Of a DNA stretch of 64,000 nt, positions 6,659-54,778 are shown piece by piece. Within the stretch, counting starts at the first letter, position 1. Each line of letters starts with the position of its first letter. The notes below the pieces were generated by a model. The model ran no database searches. It saw only the letters and a list, made by a program, of their open reading frames with translations, and was not told the origin of the DNA. This DNA is from Gammaproteobacteria bacterium (GTDB lineage: Bacteria > Pseudomonadota > Gammaproteobacteria > JAUZRS01). The translations under genes and the position numbers were made by a program. The stretch is taken from assembly GCA_030949385.1 (NCBI GenBank), contig JAUZSP010000008.1, positions 124,001-188,000 of the forward strand. The letters are read 5' to 3'.

Positions 6659-6901
6659 TTACGGTGTTGCACCCACTTGGATGGTGAGTTGATACAAATA
6701 TTCTTCTTCGTGGCTGTCGATGACATTGTGACCGTTGATGCGACTCCAAGCGGGGATGTCGTTCATTACTCCCGGATCGGTGCAGATGACGGTAACGGTG
6801 TCGCCCGTTTGCAGATTTTTGATTTGGTCTTGCAGACGAATCACCGGCATGGGGCAGAGCAGGCGGCGGGCATCGAGGTCAATGTGGCTCACAGGTACCA
6901 C
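6659..6901 (-). CDS. TusA/SirA-family sulfur carrier protein
   Basis: Small cytoplasmic protein of 80 residues. The family signature CPMPVIRLQDQI at residues 16-27 contains the persulfide-carrying Cys16, followed by the usual beta-alpha-beta-alpha core (TGDTVTVICTDPGVMNDIPAW). TusA-type proteins relay sulfane sulfur, in tRNA 2-thiolation or in dissimilatory sulfur metabolism. It overlaps the upstream PP-loop ATPase gene by 13 bases, so it is very likely the sulfur donor or partner of that enzyme. Orthology to E. coli TusA itself is not claimed. Confidence 0.88.
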   Translation of the reverse strand: MVPVSHIDLDARRLLCPMPVIRLQDQIKNLQTGDTVTVICTDPGVMNDIPAWSRINGHNVIDSHEEEYLYQLTIQVGATP

Positions 6902-7932
6902 TCCTTGGGAATGTCGTCGCTGCCCAATGGTTTGATGCTGTATTGGCGTTTCACGCCGTTTTTCAGTCCCAGCTCCACATCGACCTGTTCTTCGCTGCGG
7001 CCTTTGCCAAAACGCGCCAAGATGCGCGCCGCCAGCTGGAGGTCTTCGCTGTTGGGTTTGCCATCAATTAAGGCCATTGGGCCGGTGTGGCTGGTGCAAT
7101 GCAGGTGGTCAAACTCTTTACGATAACCTTCCATAAAACGGCATTCGCCCTCTTCACGGGCGATGATCAATTTGAAGCGGGCGTTGGGACGAATGTGGCG
7201 GCCAACTTTGAGCAGCATGATGTCGTCCATCTCGTAATTTTTGTCGTTGCGGTTTTGCCACAGATCCACCAGTTTGTTGGAGTAGCTGGCATCGGTGAGA
7301 AAACAGCAACCGCCCGCCGGTTGGGCGTAGTCGTCGATGCCCAGTTCGTTGGCTAAGGCGATTTGCGGTTTGCGTGAGCGCCCAGAAAAATCGAACAGTT
7401 GCTCACGGTCCACCCAACCTTCCCGTTCGGGCAAAGTTTCGGGCAGATTTTTGGCGCTCAGGGGGCGCAGCAGCAGTTCGTCGGCTCCCGATTGGTGGGC
7501 GATGATGGGCATGGTCTGTTTGCGCTGCGACATGGGGCGTTGTCCGATCACTTCGCCGGTGATGATGAAGTCGAAGTCGTTCTCTTTGATCCATTCATGG
7601 GCTTTTTTGACCATGAAAATTTTGCAGTCTAGGCAGGGGTTCATGTTGGCCCCGTAGCCGTATTTGGGGTTGATGAGCACGTCTTTGTATTCTTCGATCA
7701 CATCGATAATGTGCAGCTTCATGCCGAGCTGTTCGGCGACCCAGAGGGCGTTGTTGCGTTTGGGTTTTTTATCGTCTTGCTTGCGGATGGCGTGGGTGTG
7801 GCCTTCGACGCAGAAGCCGGTGAAAAAGTTGATCCCCTCCACATGAATGCCCTGATCCATTATAACTTGGCTGGCGAGCATGGAATCGAGTCCACCGGAG
7901 ACCAGTGAGACGGCTTTGTATTGTTTTGACAT
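6889..7932 (-). CDS. PP-loop ATPase, MnmA-like tRNA thiolation protein with DUF814-like C-terminus
   Basis: The start at 7932 (MSKQYKAVSLVSGG) has AGGAAG seven bases upstream. The 347-residue product begins with the PP-loop SGGLDSMLA (residues 11-19), typical of enzymes that adenylate a nucleobase or carboxylate before sulfur transfer. Cys-containing motifs NPCLDCK and GGCCFL are candidate catalytic or metal-binding cysteines. The C-terminal part (KLIIAREEGECRFMEGY) resembles the NFACT-R/DUF814 RNA-binding module. Such proteins are usually labelled tRNA methyltransferase or thiouridylase-like; the real substrate is unknown. The overlapping TusA-like gene supports a thiolation role. A broken copy of its 5' end occurs at 10331-10486. 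Confidence 0.8.
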   Translation of the reverse strand: MSKQYKAVSLVSGGLDSMLASQVIMDQGIHVEGINFFTGFCVEGHTHAIRKQDDKKPKRNNALWVAEQLGMKLHIIDVIEEYKDVLINPKYGYGANMNPCLDCKIFMVKKAHEWIKENDFDFIITGEVIGQRPMSQRKQTMPIIAHQSGADELLLRPLSAKNLPETLPEREGWVDREQLFDFSGRSRKPQIALANELGIDDYAQPAGGCCFLTDASYSNKLVDLWQNRNDKNYEMDDIMLLKVGRHIRPNARFKLIIAREEGECRFMEGYRKEFDHLHCTSHTGPMALIDGKPNSEDLQLAARILARFGKGRSEEQVDVELGLKNGVKRQYSIKPLGSDDIPKEWYL

Positions 7933-8165
7933 ATGTTTGCTTCCTGCCGAGGGGCGGCTAATCTGATGTGGCGGGCATTGTAACAAGCTCTTGGGGTGGG
8001 CGTGTAGTGTTGCTGAATCCTTATCTTTAGCTATGATGAAAAACAGAACGGGAGGGAGAATGTTATTTTATGTGATGTATCATCTGGAACTTATTGCCAG
8101 ATTTATGGAGTATTTCTCTCTTTTCTGGAAGGGGTATTCTTTATTTTTGCTGTCTGAATACCAAA

Positions 8166-9338: not shown

Positions 9339-9695
9339 ATGGCTACAAACCTTTCTATTGATGTAAGTTTGCTTGACGAGGCGTAACTACTCAGCCCACT
9401 TGGATAACGTAACTCATTGATAATAAACAATATGATTTTTTTCAAAATGGTGAAAATGCCGTTTGTTGGTCAAAAACACCCAATAAAGGTATATTTTTTC
9501 ATTAAAAATCAATAAGTTATATGGCTGAGTAGTTACGACGAGGCTTTAATTGTTGGCGGGCTAAAAACAAAAAAAGACACTGTAAATCAGGCTCTTACGG
9601 AATTTGTGCAGCGTCGAAAGCAGCGCGAGATAATGCAGTTTTTTGGTCGTCTGCCCCAAGATTCAGACTATGACTACAAGCAAGGCTGTAAATGA
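9339..9695 (+). pseudogene. VapB-type antitoxin interrupted by a MITE
   Basis: The start MATNLSIDVSLLDEA is at 9339. The 154-bp element at 9383-9536 then interrupts the gene within codon 15. After it the frame resumes as EALIVGGLKTKKDTVNQALT and ends YDYKQGCK at 9693-9695. Removing the element and one copy of its 8-bp target duplication restores a clean 64-residue antitoxin of the DUF2191/VapB kind, with a ribbon-helix-helix N-terminus. The stop overlaps the vapC start (ATGA), as in intact vapBC operons. Confidence 0.85.
9383..9536. mobile_element. MITE copy 1 (154 bp, GTAA ends, 8-bp target duplication)
   Basis: The ends are perfect 14-bp inverted repeats GTAACTACTCAGCC / GGCTGAGTAGTTAC. 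The flanks are direct repeats GACGAGGC at 9375-9382 and 9537-9544. There is no coding capacity. A second copy of about the same size lies at 52298-52450. The GTAA terminus and 8-bp duplication are features of the IS66 family, so the element was probably mobilised by an IS66-type transposase; that link is inferred. Confidence 0.9.
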
Positions 9696-9898
9696 GAGGT
9701 GTGCTGGTGGATACCTGCATTTGGTCTTTGGCGGAATATTCAAATCTTTGCCGCTCGAAAGGCGTTCAAGGTTCGCATACAGATTTTTTGATCTGTGCTG
9801 TTGCCATGCGTAAAAAATTCAAAATTTATACCGTTGATGAAGACTTCAGGCACTACGCAAAGCACATACCGCTGATGCTTGATTCAATACCCCGCTGA
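9692..9898 (+). pseudogene. VapC PIN-domain toxin with internal deletion
   Basis: The N-terminus MRGVLVDTCIWSLA, with the first catalytic Asp, is joined directly to the C-terminal half SKGVQGSHTDFLICAVA, which carries the last acidic site, and to YTVDEDFRHYAKHIPLML. VapC proteins are about 130 residues; this has 68, lacking the middle acidic residues. The deletion is in frame, but the RNase should be inactive. It overlaps the disrupted vapB by four bases. Confidence 0.8.
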
Positions 9899-10399
9899 AA
9901 TTTCAATGCAGTTTCGGAAAGCGGTTGAAATTCGTTCATCACCCACAACCCTTTGCCAAAAATCACGAGCTGTCTTTTTAACGCTTAAGATGGTTTTGTT
10001 GTCTAAATTCAATGCCGGAATCTCCGGTGGTGAAAAACGATAGGGCGAGAGTTCAGCGCCACTTTTGGGAGCAAAGCCCATAGAACACATGTCGTAAATG
10101 GGCAGCAGTTTAAAACCTTTGCCCTTGATACCGAGGCTCAAATTACCCAAGTGCATGTCGGTGTTGTTGATCAATCGACCAAAATTCCACAAAAAATCGG
10201 TGTGACAGACATCTTCCCAACTGACCAACTGCATTTCATGCAGTGCTTGCAGGATCTTTGGCCAATCACTGCCCGAACCGACAAACTCAGCATCAACGGC
10301 TTGTAGAGAAATCATGGCCGTTCGCCCCTGTTCGGCGACCCAGAGGGCGTTGTTGCTCTTGGGGGTTTTTCTCGTCTTGATGACTTGGCTGGCGAGCAT
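9884..10399 (-). pseudogene. HipA/YjjJ-family kinase C-terminal remnant fused to PP-loop gene fragment
   Basis: The frame starts with MLASQVIKTRKTPKSNNALW, a shortened version of the PP-loop protein N-terminus encoded at 7932. It then switches to a HipA-type kinase C-terminus: MISLQAVDAEFVGSGSDWP, FGRLINNTDMHLGNLSL (the catalytic-loop motif) and IYDMCSMGFAPKSG. These segments match the YjjJ branch of HipA-like Ser/Thr kinases. The first 250 or so residues, including the ATP-binding part, are missing. The chimaera looks like the product of recombination between unrelated sequences and is unlikely to be functional. Confidence 0.8.
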
Positions 10400-10486
10400 G
10401 GAGTTAAGTCCACCGGAGACCAGACTGTTTTGACATGTGTTTGCTTCCTGCCGAGGGGCGGCTAATCTGATGTGGCGGGCATTGTA
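10331..10486 (-). repeat. Degenerate partial duplication of the PP-loop gene 5' region
   Basis: This segment matches 7732-7983 closely in several blocks, including GACATRTGTTTGCTTCCTGC and the upstream leader GGGCGGCTAATCTGATGTGG, but lacks two internal blocks, including the SGG part of the PP-loop. It therefore contains the duplicated promoter/leader plus scraps of the N-terminus. Confidence 0.85.
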
Positions 10487-10603
10487 GCAATCTCTGAGGA
10501 AGAAAGTAGGTTGATAACAGGTTCAAGTACCGTATTATTCATAGTGGTAATTTTTCTACTATAGAAAATTTATTCATCACTACCCAGCTAGGGATTTTAA
10601 AGA

Positions 10604-30238: not shown

Positions 30239-30424
30239 ATGTGGTTTTTTCTGTTGATTTTTATTGTGGCGCTGTTTTTTGCCATAAAATTTTGGTTAGG
30301 TCAGCGTGTACCGCGTTTGAGCGCGCCAGATTCTCCGCTGGACTTGCTGAAAATGCGCTACGCAAAAGGTGAGATTGATGAGGATGAATTTCAGCGCTGT
30401 CGGTCAGAGTTGGAAAAACAGTGA
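30239..30424 (+). CDS. SHOCT domain small membrane protein
   Basis: The 61-residue product starts with one membrane helix (FFLLIFIVALFFAIKFWL) and ends in a SHOCT motif, LLKMRYAKGEIDEDEFQRC. SHOCT domains are short oligomerisation or peptide-binding elements. GGAG lies upstream of the start, with 18 bases from the preceding gene. It is probably part of the copper operon. Confidence 0.85.
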   Translation: MWFFLLIFIVALFFAIKFWLGQRVPRLSAPDSPLDLLKMRYAKGEIDEDEFQRCRSELEKQ

Positions 30425-30455: not shown

Positions 30456-30845
30456 ATGTACCATTTTTTTGTGGATTTGAAAGGCACACTGTCTGAGTTT
30501 GAGCCGCGCTTGGTTGCAGCACTAAAAGCAGAGGGGTTTGGCATTATCACCGAAATTGATATTCAGGCTACTTTGAAAAAAAAGCTGGATATTGAAAAAC
30601 GCCCCTATAAAATTTTAGGTGCGTGTAATCCTGGGTTGGCCAATCAAGCATTGGATTTTGAGCCAGAAATCGGTCTTTTATTGCCCTGCAATGTGGTGAT
30701 CAGAGAATGTGATGATGAAACGGTACGGGTCTCTTTTATGGATCCTGAAGCGGTGTTAACGCTGGTGGATCGTGAAGAGGTGACGGTGTTGGCTAAAGAG
30801 GTGAAAGAGCGTTTACTACGGGTTATGCAAAGCCTGAAAAGCTAG
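30456..30845 (+). CDS. DUF302 domain protein
   Basis: The 129-residue product has the DUF302 features AALKAEGFGIITEIDIQATL, YKILGACNPGLANQAL and LLPCNVVI. It has no signal peptide, so it is probably cytoplasmic. DUF302 proteins are often found near copper or oxidative-stress genes. It is the last gene before a strong terminator and ends the cluster that begins at 26141. Confidence 0.9.
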   Translation: MYHFFVDLKGTLSEFEPRLVAALKAEGFGIITEIDIQATLKKKLDIEKRPYKILGACNPGLANQALDFEPEIGLLLPCNVVIRECDDETVRVSFMDPEAVLTLVDREEVTVLAKEVKERLLRVMQSLKS

Positions 30846-30865
30846 ACGTGAAGTTAAATTTAGAG

Positions 30866-30892
30866 AAAAAGGCACGTATACGTGCCTTTTTT
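30866..30892. terminator. Bidirectional Rho-independent terminator
   Basis: AAAAAGGCACGTA / TACGTGCCTTTTTT forms a perfect stem between the convergent DUF302 and nhaA genes, with A and T tracts on both sides. Confidence 0.9.
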
Positions 30893-30901
30893 ATTGGCTG
30901 T

Positions 30902-33061: not shown

Positions 33062-33739
33062 ATGATTCCTTGGCATGAGATTGATACGGTTTTTTTAGAT
33101 CTGGATGGCACATTGCTGGATCTGCATTTTGATAACCATTTTTGGTTGGAACATGTGCCGCAGCGGTACGCAGAAAAAAACGGTATGTCGCTGGCTTGGG
33201 CAAAAGAGGAGTTGATGCGGCGTTATTTGGCCATTGAGGGCAGTTTGCAGTGGTATTGCCTCGATCATTGGGGTGCTGAGCTGAATCTGGACATTGTGCA
33301 GCTCAAGCGCGAGATGCACCATTTGATTGCCATTCGTCCGGCGGTGGTGCCGTTTTTGGATGCTTTGCGCGCCGCCGGAAAACGGGTGGTGTTGGCCACC
33401 AACGCCCATCGGGGTACGTTGGTGTTGAAGATGGAAGTGACCAAATTAGAGGGGCATTTTGATGTTATGCACAGCGCCCATGATGACGGCACACCGAAAG
33501 AGCAGCCGGAATTTTGGCAGCAGATGCAGTTAAAAGAACCCTTTGATCCCGCCCGCTCGTTATTAATTGACGATAATGAGAATGTGTTAAGAGCCGCTCG
33601 TGAGTATGGCTTGGCGCATCTGTTGGGGATCAAGAAACCGGACAGCAGAGGCGCTGATAAGCAGTTGCTTGATTTTGTTATGCTGGAGAGTTTTGCTGAT
33701 CTGCTGCCGGTTTTACCTGCAATAAAAGAGTGGGCTTAA
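33062..33739 (+). CDS. yrfG: HAD-family GMP/IMP nucleotidase YrfG
   Basis: Cytoplasmic HAD phosphatase that dephosphorylates purine mononucleotides in the enteric homologue. The 225-residue product has motif I FLDLDGTLLDLHFDNHFWLE, motif II VVLATNAHRG, motif III Lys in GTPKEQPEF and motif IV LLIDDNENVLRAA. Its last 40 residues are duplicated as a loose fragment at 34743-34868, after the Fic gene, so the present 3' end may have been supplied by an insertion. The fic start overlaps the stop (TAATG). Confidence 0.93.
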   Translation: MIPWHEIDTVFLDLDGTLLDLHFDNHFWLEHVPQRYAEKNGMSLAWAKEELMRRYLAIEGSLQWYCLDHWGAELNLDIVQLKREMHHLIAIRPAVVPFLDALRAAGKRVVLATNAHRGTLVLKMEVTKLEGHFDVMHSAHDDGTPKEQPEFWQQMQLKEPFDPARSLLIDDNENVLRAAREYGLAHLLGIKKPDSRGADKQLLDFVMLESFADLLPVLPAIKEWA

Positions 33740-34743
33740 TGGGCTACCAACCGCCTTATTGCATTACTCCTGCCATTATTACGTTGATTGCAGAGATTAG
33801 CGAAAAGTTGGGGGCATTGGCGGTGCTACAAACCGGTGAAGATAAGTTACGTCTACGCCGAATTAACCGCATCCGAACCATTCAAGGCTCTCTTGCTATT
33901 GAAGGTAATACCTTAACCGAAGCACAAATCACCGCAGTTTTAGCAGGCAAGCCCGTTATTGCCCCACCGAAAGAGGTGCAAGAAGTGCGTAATGCACTGC
34001 AAGCCTATGAAAAACTCGATCACTGGCAAGCCGATCAACAAAATGATGTGCTGAATGCTCATCAGTTGTTAATGCAAGGTTTGATCGACGATGCAGGCCA
34101 CTATCGCCAATCCGGTGTTGGAGTGATGCAGGGAGACGTAGTGATTCACATGGCACCTCCGGCCAATCGGGTTGCGGGTTTAATGCAGGATTTATTGCAT
34201 TGGCTTAGGCACAGCAAAGAACACTCTTTGATTCGTAGTTGTGTGTTTCATTATGAATTTGAATTTATTCATCCCTTTGCCGATGGCAATGGTCGTATGG
34301 GGCGTTTATGGCAAACGCTGATATTAAGCCAATGGAAGCCGATCTTTGCCCATTTGCCTGTTGAAAGCCTCGTTTACGCGCATCAAGCGGAGTATTATCT
34401 TGCTTTGCAAGAGAGTACCGAACAGACCAATTCTGCTCCATTTATAGCGTTTATGTTGCAGCGAATTTTAGAAGCCTGTGTATCTGCTAGCGATCAAGTA
34501 ACCGATCAAGTAAGCGATCAAGTAAACACGCTGTTAAAGGTGCTGTATAAGCATTCAGTCCTGACCGCAGATGAGTTGCTAAAACAGTTGGGTTTAAAGC
34601 ATCGACCAACGTTTCGTAAAAATTACTTAACTCCCGCATTACAAAATAATTTGATAACGATGACACAGCCTGATCGGCCTAAAAGTCCAACACAAAAATA
34701 TCGTTTAACGGGCAAGGGACTTTCTTGGGCAAGTAAGCGATAG
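33739..34743 (+). CDS. Fic family protein (AMPylation domain)
   Basis: Transfers AMP or another nucleotide group to target proteins. The 334-residue product has the catalytic motif HPFADGNGRMGRLWQTLILS, a self-inhibitory helix of the N-terminal type SLAIEGNTLTEAQ, and a DUF4172/Fic_N-like start. A DQVTDQVSDQV repeat leads into a C-terminal winged-helix part (TADELLKQLGLKHRPTFRKN). It overlaps yrfG by one base and is followed by a stray copy of the yrfG 3' end, pointing to insertion at that site. No separate antitoxin gene is seen. Confidence 0.93.
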   Translation: MGYQPPYCITPAIITLIAEISEKLGALAVLQTGEDKLRLRRINRIRTIQGSLAIEGNTLTEAQITAVLAGKPVIAPPKEVQEVRNALQAYEKLDHWQADQQNDVLNAHQLLMQGLIDDAGHYRQSGVGVMQGDVVIHMAPPANRVAGLMQDLLHWLRHSKEHSLIRSCVFHYEFEFIHPFADGNGRMGRLWQTLILSQWKPIFAHLPVESLVYAHQAEYYLALQESTEQTNSAPFIAFMLQRILEACVSASDQVTDQVSDQVNTLLKVLYKHSVLTADELLKQLGLKHRPTFRKNYLTPALQNNLITMTQPDRPKSPTQKYRLTGKGLSWASKR

Positions 34744-34868
34744 CCGCTTGCGAGTGGGGTTTAGCGTATCTGTTGGGGATCAAACGACCGGACAGCAGAG
34801 GCGCTGATAAGCAGTTGCTTGATTTTTTGATGGTGGATAATCTTGCGAATTTGTTGTTGGTAGGGTAG
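34743..34868 (+). pseudogene. Displaced 3' end of yrfG
   Basis: In frame it reads CEWGLAYLLGIKRPDSRGAD then KQLLDFLMVDNLANLLLVG and stops at 34866. It matches YrfG residues 180-220 closely, with about 60 bp nearly identical (33618-33676 versus 34769-34827). It is the probable original gene end, separated from yrfG by the Fic gene. Confidence 0.85.
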
Positions 34869-34900
34869 CATTATTTTTTTTAAAAAAAGGGGCTGAAATC

Positions 34901-35383
34901 GTGTTTAAGGTTATATGGAGTTTTGGTTTTATGTTGCTGTCATTTACATCTTACGCAGATTTAAGTGAAGCTTATAATTTGTCTAAGGGTGAGGCATTAG
35001 CTGGCTGTATCGAAAGAAAAATTCCGATTATTGACAGAATTAGAGTTTCCGATATACGGTCATATACTAAATATGACAAGCATTATATATCCTTGAGTTC
35101 AAATAGTATTTATGTGGATTATGATTCCAGTAAAAGTATGATTACTATGCTTTATGTGAAAAATTATGATGTAAGTGAAAGGACAAAAATAGAAGATGCA
35201 AAAAAATCTTTGCAGAATATAAAGTCCTTATTATTTGTTCCAGCATTATCATTGTGTTCCAGTGTTATTGGGATAAAAAATTCAGTAAAATTTTCAATGG
35301 GTTTTATGGACCCAGCATTTAAAGATAGATTACAAAAAGTAATTGTTCATATGGATGAAAGTGGAGTTTTTTTACTGCCTTGA
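34901..35383 (+). CDS. Hypothetical exported protein
   Basis: The 160-residue product starts at a GTG (34901) and has a signal peptide (MLLSFTSYA). Two cysteines (GCIERK and LCSSV) may form a disulfide. No family is recognised. The gene is strongly AT-rich compared with yrfG and uvrA, and follows the Fic insertion, so it probably arrived with it. Confidence 0.65.
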   Translation: MFKVIWSFGFMLLSFTSYADLSEAYNLSKGEALAGCIERKIPIIDRIRVSDIRSYTKYDKHYISLSSNSIYVDYDSSKSMITMLYVKNYDVSERTKIEDAKKSLQNIKSLLFVPALSLCSSVIGIKNSVKFSMGFMDPAFKDRLQKVIVHMDESGVFLLP

Positions 35384-35403
35384 TGGGGCGTGCTTTAAAA
35401 TTT

Positions 35404-35748
35404 TCATAAATATTTTTTTGACTGGGCTACATAATGCAACGCCAACCAAACGGTCTGTTCTTCAGCATCCGTCCTGCACACTCGGTGCTTCCGGTGTGCT
35501 GGGATGTGTAACCAGTCACCGACGTTCAATGCCGCATTTTGAGTCGGCTCAATAAACTGCAATTCTGCGCTGCCTTGCAGCAGTAACACCCATTCATCTT
35601 GATCTTGATCGTACCACTCATCTTCTGCTGTGCTCTGACCCTGAGAAACAATGCGCTCCAGTTTGAAATTCGCTGTTTCCAGTAGAGTAGTGAACAGCTC
35701 TTCTGGTAGTTGAGCTGGAATATTGGCAAACAGGTTTTCCCTTTTCAT
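35404..35748 (-). CDS. Cupin domain protein
   Basis: The 114-residue product has a single cupin barrel: [15 protein letters not shown] for motif 1, here without the usual HxH, and [11 protein letters not shown] for motif 2, with a metal-ligand His. A similar protein is found next to uvrA in several gammaproteobacteria. The ligand and reaction are unknown. It overlaps the literal uvrA end by four bases, but lies 34 bases beyond the corrected uvrA stop. Confidence 0.85.
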
Positions 35749-52297: not shown

Positions 52298-52450
52298 GTA
52301 ACTACTCAGCCCACGTTAGACAACGTAACAAATTGATAATAAACAATATTTTTTAAAAATGGTGAAAAATGTTGTTTGTTGGTCAAAAACACACCAATAC
52401 AGGTGTGTTTTTTTATTAAAAATCAATAAGTTATATGGCTGAGTAGTTAC
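52298..52450. mobile_element. MITE copy 2 (153 bp)
   Basis: Same terminal repeats as copy 1 (GTAACTACTCAGCC / GGCTGAGTAGTTAC) and over 80 percent alike inside by eye. An inner hairpin ACACACC / GGTGTGT followed by TTTTTT resembles a terminator. No target duplication is seen: the left flank is GGATGTTA and the right flank is the cytochrome fragment, so one side was probably rearranged. Confidence 0.88.
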
Positions 52451-52847
52451 TTTAGATGTTTTATTACTTCCATCTGCTGTTTTACAAGCAGGTGTTTGGG
52501 AGGGAGTCAGTACAGAGAGTGCTCAGATTTTGGCTTTAAAGCCTAATATGGTGAATGGGCTTAAATTATATGACTGATGTTACGCACTGAACAAGAACCG
52601 GTGTCCCGACCCTAAAGGTTATTCAGGTGAGGTAAGACCATCCACCACAAAACTCAAACAACACGACCTGATTTTCCCTCTTCAATGGAAGAGAGGTTCT
52701 GGGTTAGGGGAGGTTTATTTTTCGCACGTCATTCCCGCCTTCGCGGGAATGACGTGGGCTGAGATTCTCTTGGTTTCTCACTCACTGCGTAACATCAGTT
52801 ATATGAAAAAAATTGTGGTGTGAGTCGCATGAAGTGCAAGGAGCAGA
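52451..52847 (+). pseudogene. 5' fragment of a dihaem cytochrome c gene, interrupted
   Basis: The segment 52453-52572 copies the 5' part of the cytochrome gene at 54044 (LLPSAVLQAGVWEGVSTES and LALKPN regions) with few changes. The copy is broken by an element at 52573-52799, then resumes with TATGAAAAAAATTGTG at 52802, and degenerates within the first haem site. It has no start codon because the MITE replaced it. Confidence 0.85.
52573..52799. mobile_element. Second MITE-type element (227 bp) inside the cytochrome fragment
   Basis: The ends ACTGATGTTACGCA and TGCGTAACATCAGT are perfect 14-bp inverted repeats, and TATATG is directly repeated at 52567-52572 and 52800-52805. It contains no gene and holds a REP-like palindrome (ATTCCCGCC-TTCG-CGGGAAT) near 52730. 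The family of the parent transposon is unknown. Confidence 0.8.
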
Positions 52848-54043: not shown

Positions 54044-54778
54044 ATGCGCGTGGTGACATTCAGAGAAATGGTTAGAGTATTTTTAGGTGTTTTATTACTT
54101 CAATCTGCTGTGTTACAAGCGGGTGTTTGGGAGGGAGTCAGTACAGAGAGTGCTCGGATTTTGGCTTTAAAGCCTAATCTGGAGAATGGGCTTAAATTGT
54201 ATGAAAAAAATTGTGTTATGTGCCATGAGGTGGAGGGGTGGGGATCCATCTATGGTGGTGATTTTCCTCAGTTGGCGGGTCAGCATCAATCCGTATTAGT
54301 GAAGCAGCTGCTGGATATGAGGGATGGAAAAAGAGTCAATCTGCCTATGATGGAGGAGGTGTTTTCAAAGAAGGTGCTTCAGTCGCCACAAGACTTTGCA
54401 GATGTAGCGGCTTACGTTTCAGCCCTTCCCATGACAACCGAAAATGGTAAGGGTAAAGATGAGGATGTGATGCGTGGGGGAGAAATCTATAAAAAAACCT
54501 GTATGGCTTGTCATGGCAAACATGCGGAAGGGAATGCTAAGGCAGTGGTTCCTCTTTTGAAATCTCAGCATTATGGTTATATGCTCACACAATTTATGGC
54601 GATTAAAGCAGGACATCGGGGTAATTCAGATCCTGCTATGACGGCGGTGATTCAAAATTTGAGTGATGAAGATGCACGCGGGGTACTGGATTATATTTCT
54701 CGGATTAAGCCAGCTAAGAGTAAACGAGCAGCGGAGTGGAATTTCTCCAGTGTGATGGATCAGTTTAAAGCTCATTAA
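54044..54778 (+). CDS. Dihaem cytochrome c (c4-like), paralogue 1
   Basis: The start at 54044 has AAGG upstream. The 244-residue product has a signal peptide (LLLQSAVLQA) and two haem sites, NCVMCHEVEGWG and TCMACHGKHAEG, each in a similar helical domain with Met candidates (MMEEVFSKK, MTAVIQNLSDEDARG). Tandem c4-type cytochromes are periplasmic electron carriers to terminal oxidases. It is closely related to the gene at 55358 and to the broken copy at 52451. A terminator follows. Confidence 0.9.
   Translation: MRVVTFREMVRVFLGVLLLQSAVLQAGVWEGVSTESARILALKPNLENGLKLYEKNCVMCHEVEGWGSIYGGDFPQLAGQHQSVLVKQLLDMRDGKRVNLPMMEEVFSKKVLQSPQDFADVAAYVSALPMTTENGKGKDEDVMRGGEIYKKTCMACHGKHAEGNAKAVVPLLKSQHYGYMLTQFMAIKAGHRGNSDPAMTAVIQNLSDEDARGVLDYISRIKPAKSKRAAEWNFSSVMDQFKAH

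What the first reader, a model, noticed from the sequence alone, without database searches (positions are those of the whole stretch)
33560..34868. Fic gene inserted at the 3' end of yrfG, leaving the old end behind
The last 40 codons of yrfG are present twice: once in the live gene and once after fic at 34743-34868, with about 60 bp nearly identical. This is the arrangement left by an element that enters a gene end and supplies a new one. The AT-rich gene at 34901 may belong to the same import.
Basis: partly seen in the sequence, partly recalled or inferred. Interest (0 to 1): 0.6.

Follow-up and report, generated by a model that had tools for sequence, protein, structure and literature searches.

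The report
Foreign fic insert beside gene yrfG
Next to a housekeeping gene, this bacterium has gained a small piece of foreign DNA carrying a Fic enzyme gene and a stray scrap of a gene end, most likely through ordinary, imprecise recombination rather than a dedicated mobile element.

Summary
In detail: 33592-33711, near the end of yrfG, recurs at 34742-34861 after fic (82% of 120 bp), with a 40-bp identical core. The only same-genus genome held (G001) lacks fic, the second tail and the AT-rich gene. It runs colinear to 33723, has 99 unrelated bp, and resumes at 35431, so the insert is 33724-35430, about 1.7 kb. The AT-rich gene (34901-35383) belongs to it.

The live yrfG end is the inherited one: 118/126 identical to G001, in line with the surrounding DNA. 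The downstream copy is the odd one: 97/126 to G001, dS 0.85 outside the core against 0.14-0.27 between the genomes. It reads as the in-frame 3' end of another YrfG with its own stop. Only the last few codons of yrfG, and of the cupin gene on the other side, are new.

No integrase, tRNA or attachment-site pattern was found. None of 61 other yrfG loci shows a tail copy.

Best reading: fic and AT-rich cargo with a truncated foreign YrfG tail, brought in by recombination of the homology-facilitated illegitimate kind. A decayed tandem duplicate is the main rival. Known kind, low to moderate interest.

The parts
33062..33739 (+). yrfG, live gene (GMP/IMP nucleotidase, HAD family), 225 aa
   Evidence: NCBIfam NF011564, 232 bits against cut-off 189; 96% aa identity to G001
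33592..33711 (+). live copy of the repeated tail
   Evidence: 118/126 identical to G001 over the 126 bp from 33592
33724..35430 (.). insert relative to G001 (which has 99 unrelated bp here)
   Evidence: colinear blocks end at 33723 and resume at 35431; no match of the 99 bp in the window's genome
33739..34743 (+). fic: intact Fic protein, HPFADGNGRMGR at residue 178, SLAIEG at 51; start codon overlaps the yrfG stop
   Evidence: Pfam PF02661 and PF21247; motifs; ends compared with 19 homologues
34743..34868 (+). remnant: in-frame 3' end of a second, diverged YrfG with its own stop; no start
33637..33676 (+). identical 40-bp core, live copy (partner 34787-34826)
34901..35383 (+). AT-rich orphan gene, 160 aa, GC 30%, hydrophobic N-terminus like a signal peptide (by eye)
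   Evidence: no Pfam/NCBIfam/PHROG/PADLOC hit; found in 1 of 274 genomes, its own; no plasmid hit
35404..35748 (-). cupin-like gene, convergent with yrfG; last codons VAQSKKYL where G001 has SP
   Evidence: just under the Pfam Cupin_2 cut-off; end compared

Best explanation
The intergenic space between the convergent genes yrfG and cupin has received about 1.7 kb of foreign DNA: an intact fic gene, a truncated 3' end of a YrfG orthologue from an unsampled related species, and an AT-rich orphan gene. The scrap of YrfG entered with the cargo; it is not the host's displaced end. The most likely route is RecA-type recombination anchored on homology at the yrfG or cupin side and joined without homology on the other (homology-facilitated illegitimate recombination), in one or two steps. 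The identical 40-bp core probably reflects later gene conversion between the copies. fic ended up overlapping yrfG (TAATG), probably translationally coupled to it. Shown: the repeat, the insert boundaries against G001, the divergence of the remnant. Inferred: direction, donor, mechanism, conversion, coupling.
For: G001 lacks the whole insert and is colinear on both sides; cupin-uvrA continues on its contig C188, which overlaps the end of C217. Live tail against G001: 118/126; remnant against G001: 97/126; live against remnant: 98/126. Identity G000/G001 is 90-95% over most of 17.5-51.5 kb, with one 3.6-kb stretch at 83%, so the live copy is ordinary and the remnant is not. Remnant outside the core: dS 0.85, dN 0.31, against dS 0.14-0.27 for three genes between the genomes. 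Remnant replacements are conservative: BLOSUM62 sum +6 against a neutral mean of about -7, P about 0.005, no stop in 39 codons (test chosen after seeing the data). Its nearest match is the genus, not other relatives. fic relatives are scattered over the class and on plasmids and viral contigs. The orphan gene has GC 30% against 49.6% for the window.
Against: The donor was not found: (56 genomes) only the two same-genus genomes match the tail DNA beyond short chance-like hits. Mismatches of live against remnant fall on codon positions 10/4/8 over 117 bp, without the third-position excess of live against G001 (10/4/30), which fits decay. One relative cannot polarise gain against loss. The remnant and the fic junction need at least two joins. 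Live and G001 also differ little in the core (1 of 60), so conservation may explain part of it. The genome is a draft and no reads were available to exclude misassembly.
Confidence: 0.55

Rival explanations
1. Old local tandem duplication of the yrfG end (with or after fic arrival), the second copy decaying as a pseudogene, with part kept alike by gene conversion.
For: Direct orientation and order fit; mismatches spread over codon positions 10/4/8; two other partial gene copies lie in the window, one clearly decayed with a 14-bp deletion and shared with G001.
Against: Divergence outside the core (dS 0.85) exceeds that between the two genomes, so it must predate their split and have been lost in G001, which shows no trace. 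No stop or indel in 41 codons; conservative replacements. The remnant ends at its own stop, with no counterpart of the last 8 live codons.
Confidence: 0.27
2. One reading: a G000-like yrfG-fic piece was joined into a donor's yrfG, leaving the donor's old end behind fic; that segment then came here by homologous exchange in the flanking genes.
For: Gives the observed order with the remnant foreign, and matches the published model of an old 3' end shifted downstream (PMC5361080, passages).
Against: Needs two transfers in opposite directions; no such donor was found.
Confidence: 0.12
3. Site-specific element (integrase-type) that targets the yrfG 3' end and restores it.
For: Gene-end location; a short identical core in two direct copies.
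Against: Allele pattern is the reverse of attL/attR: the remnant is non-host on both sides of the core. No integrase in the insert. None of 61 other yrfG loci has a tail copy. Core sequence absent from viral contigs; the live tail is absent from plasmids.
Confidence: 0.05

Closest known systems
Homology-facilitated illegitimate recombination (S. pneumoniae, A. baylyi, P. stutzeri, E. coli; PMC3240628, abstract and passages)
   Same: about 1-kb foreign insert with a replaced stretch, homologous flank, no recombinase needed
   Different: here inferred from sequence only; the 3-10 bp junction microhomology cannot be assigned without the donor
V. cholerae T6SS effector displacement and Rhs C-terminal displacement with orphan 3' ends (PMC5361080, passages)
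   Same: a gene 3' end left behind a newly inserted gene
   Different: there the old host end is shifted downstream and the live end is new; here the live end is the inherited one, the gene is a housekeeping nucleotidase, and the cargo is not its own new tip
Integrative elements using gene 3' ends as attB (recalled, no call)
   Same: gene-end location and a partial gene copy on the far side of the cargo
   Different: no integrase, wrong allele polarity, not recurrent

Membership tests
Site-specific integrative element at a gene 3' end | encodes or lies beside an integrase | tested here: not met
   insert holds only fic and an orphan
Site-specific integrative element at a gene 3' end | live end element-derived, displaced end host-like | tested here: not met
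   118/126 against 97/126 to G001
Site-specific integrative element at a gene 3' end | same junction in relatives with other cargo | tested here: not met
   0 of 61 usable yrfG loci of 64; no separate tail fragment among the listed matches of the other 28 of 29 matching genomes
Homology-facilitated illegitimate recombination product | homologous sequence flanking a non-homologous insert, with loss of resident DNA | tested here: met
   1707 bp in place of 99 bp between colinear flanks; that the 99 bp were resident is assumed
Homology-facilitated illegitimate recombination product | 3-10 bp microhomology at one joint | not testable with these tools
   donor unknown
Fic/DOC protein with inhibitory helix in its own chain (class II, label recalled) | HxFx(D/E)GNGRxxR catalytic motif | tested here: met
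   HPFADGNGRMGR at 178; PF02661 75 bits, cut-off 24
Fic/DOC protein with inhibitory helix in its own chain (class II, label recalled) | (S/T)xxxE(G/N) upstream of the Fic core | tested here: met
   SLAIEG at 51; motif recalled, effect not tested
YrfG GMP/IMP nucleotidase | NCBIfam equivalog cut-off | tested here: met
   232 bits against 189

The most novel reading that the evidence does not exclude
Gene ends in this genus may be entry points where cargo arrives together with a partial orthologue of the neighbouring gene: three full-gene/cargo/partial-copy sets lie in 64 kb (yrfG tail; head of the 6889-7986 gene; head of the cytochrome gene near 54.1 kb), each with the partial copy on the far side of the cargo, as if incoming DNA from relatives is repeatedly anchored on gene ends.
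Probability: 0.1. Interest if true: 0.45.

Novelty: new member of a known kind. Interest (0 to 1): 0.22.

Why it matters
It is a small, fairly clean record of how a Fic gene was added to a chromosome without a mobile element, and a caution: a gene end found twice around cargo need not mean that the old end was displaced, since here a relative shows that the live end is the old one. If partial orthologue scraps prove common beside cargo in this genus, they would mark donor lineages and recombination joints.

Tried and rejected
Integrative element: rejected on allele polarity, lack of integrase and lack of recurrence. tRNA or known RNA at the site: none. Terminator or promoter role of the repeat: no terminator-like site; promoter-like sites no more than in shuffles. 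Truncated fic: rejected, its ends match homologues (19 compared, of which several carry a different C-terminal domain). fic beside yrfG elsewhere: no fic match in any of 64 yrfG loci. The cupin and abhydrolase neighbours of yrfG were likewise found only in G001 (the same locus twice, L002 and L046), so no other relative informs on this intergenic space. Search for the remnant plus AT-rich gene by DNA in plasmids and phages, and for the live tail in plasmids: none. The 99 bp of G001 matched nothing in G000. A 5.5-kb G001-only block beside nhaA was checked for the same signature: no internal repeat. No structure prediction of the orphan was run.

Full report
Observation. The window holds a 120-bp direct repeat, 33592-33711 and 34742-34861, 82% identical. 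The first copy is codons 178-216 of the intact yrfG gene (33062-33739); the second starts at the stop codon of fic (33739-34743) and runs to a stop of its own at 34868. It stays in the YrfG reading frame for 41 codons. The middle is much more alike than the sides: 3 mismatches in 59 bp, with 40 bp identical; that run has P = 0.0008 if the 22 mismatches in 117 bp were scattered evenly.

The empty site. The only same-genus genome among 56 searched, G001, carries yrfG at 96% aa identity. Its contig C217 has the same length (26,125) as JAUZRS010000294.1, a gammaproteobacterial MAG returned. It is colinear with the window to 33723, then has 99 bp that match nothing in the window's genome, then continues from window 35431. 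The contig ends inside the cupin gene, and contig C188 overlaps that end and carries on through uvrA. So fic, the second tail and the AT-rich gene are all absent from G001 at this site. The whole-genome searches of G001 find no close fic (best 33%), no AT-rich gene and no second tail. On both sides the last codons of the convergent genes differ: yrfG ends IKEWA here and MCL in G001; cupin ends VAQSKKYL here and SP in G001.

Which end is old. Over 126 bp the live tail matches G001 at 118 positions, the remnant at 97; live and remnant match at 98. The flanking genome is mostly 90-95% identical between the two, one 3.6-kb stretch 83%. The live end is therefore the inherited one and the remnant the outsider. 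In an integration that displaces the host end, the remnant should be host-like beyond the core and the live end should not; the reverse is seen. dS between the genomes is 0.27 (yrfG), 0.14 (uvrA) and 0.18 (abhydrolase); live against remnant outside the core gives dS 0.85 and dN 0.31 (few sites). A duplicate made after the two genomes split should not have diverged that far.

Orthologue or decayed copy. For an orthologue: replacements are conservative (P about 0.005 against simulated neutral change, a test chosen after looking), there is no stop or indel, it ends in its own stop, and its nearest match is the genus. For decay: mismatches fall 10/4/8 on codon positions, not 10/4/30 as between live and G001. 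I weigh the first higher because of the divergence, but this is not settled.

Cargo. Fic has the catalytic motif HPFADGNGRMGR and an upstream SLAIEG of the inhibitory-helix type (class label recalled), matches PF02661 and Fic-like_C, and has native-looking ends beside its homologues. Fic-type matches occur in 165 of 274 class genomes at E 0.001; the closest is 68% in G225, and relatives sit on plasmids (825 records, all below 60%) and on 8 viral-contig loci. The PADLOC hit to SoFic is a name, not a test. The AT-rich gene is an orphan in all searches made.

Recurrence. Of 64 yrfG loci (from two collections, some of which may be the same genome), 61 had at least 300 bp downstream and none carried a second tail within the stretch held (up to 5 kb); the window as control did. 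No fic matched in any of the 64. In contig C8 (196,640 bp) three nearby partial-gene direct repeats of this size were picked out by eye from the self-comparison, all in the window; the other nearby pairs were left aside as longer repeats or likely paralogues, not each identified. The one at 7.7-10.5 kb is decayed and present in G001 too; the one at 52.4-54.2 kb adjoins a repeat with inverted ends and an insert relative to G001. A 5.5-kb G001-only block beside nhaA has no such repeat. So cargo at gene ends varies between these genomes at several places, but the doubled end is not its rule.

Mechanism and comparison. Homology-facilitated illegitimate recombination, with inserts of about 1 kb replacing resident DNA and 3-10 bp microhomology at one joint (PMC3240628, abstract and passages), gives this kind of product. 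Displaced 3' ends in V. cholerae T6SS clusters and Rhs loci have been explained in a like way (PMC5361080, passages). The joints here cannot be assigned without the donor. Three paper searches were answered and I make no claim that the case is unpublished.

Verdict.

Noticed in passing
window 7729-7991 and 10328-10495: Head and upstream DNA of the minus-strand gene 6889-7986 (weakly MnmA/ThiI-like) recurs about 2.5 kb away as a decayed copy with deletions; also present in G001 on contig C32.
   Followed up: partly
window 52424-52573 and 54057-54204: Head of a cytochrome c-type gene recurs 1.6 kb upstream (87%), next to a repeat element; G001 has a few hundred bp where the window has about 2.4 kb, and a different gene head.
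   Followed up: partly
window 9383-9536 and 52298-52450: MITE-like repeat with inverted ends GTAACTACTCAGCC; further copies on G000 contigs C1 and C3, up to 100% identical.
   Followed up: no
window 30851-30900; L152: G001 carries about 5.5 kb of extra genes here between the gene at 30456-30845 and nhaA; the window has 50 bp.
   Followed up: partly
window 30239-30424: A 61-aa ORF present here and apparently absent from G001 at the same place.
   Followed up: no
window 9884-10399: ORF matching the C-terminal part of HipA-family toxin YjjJ (profile 286-429 of 446), overlapping the decayed gene-head copy.
   Followed up: no
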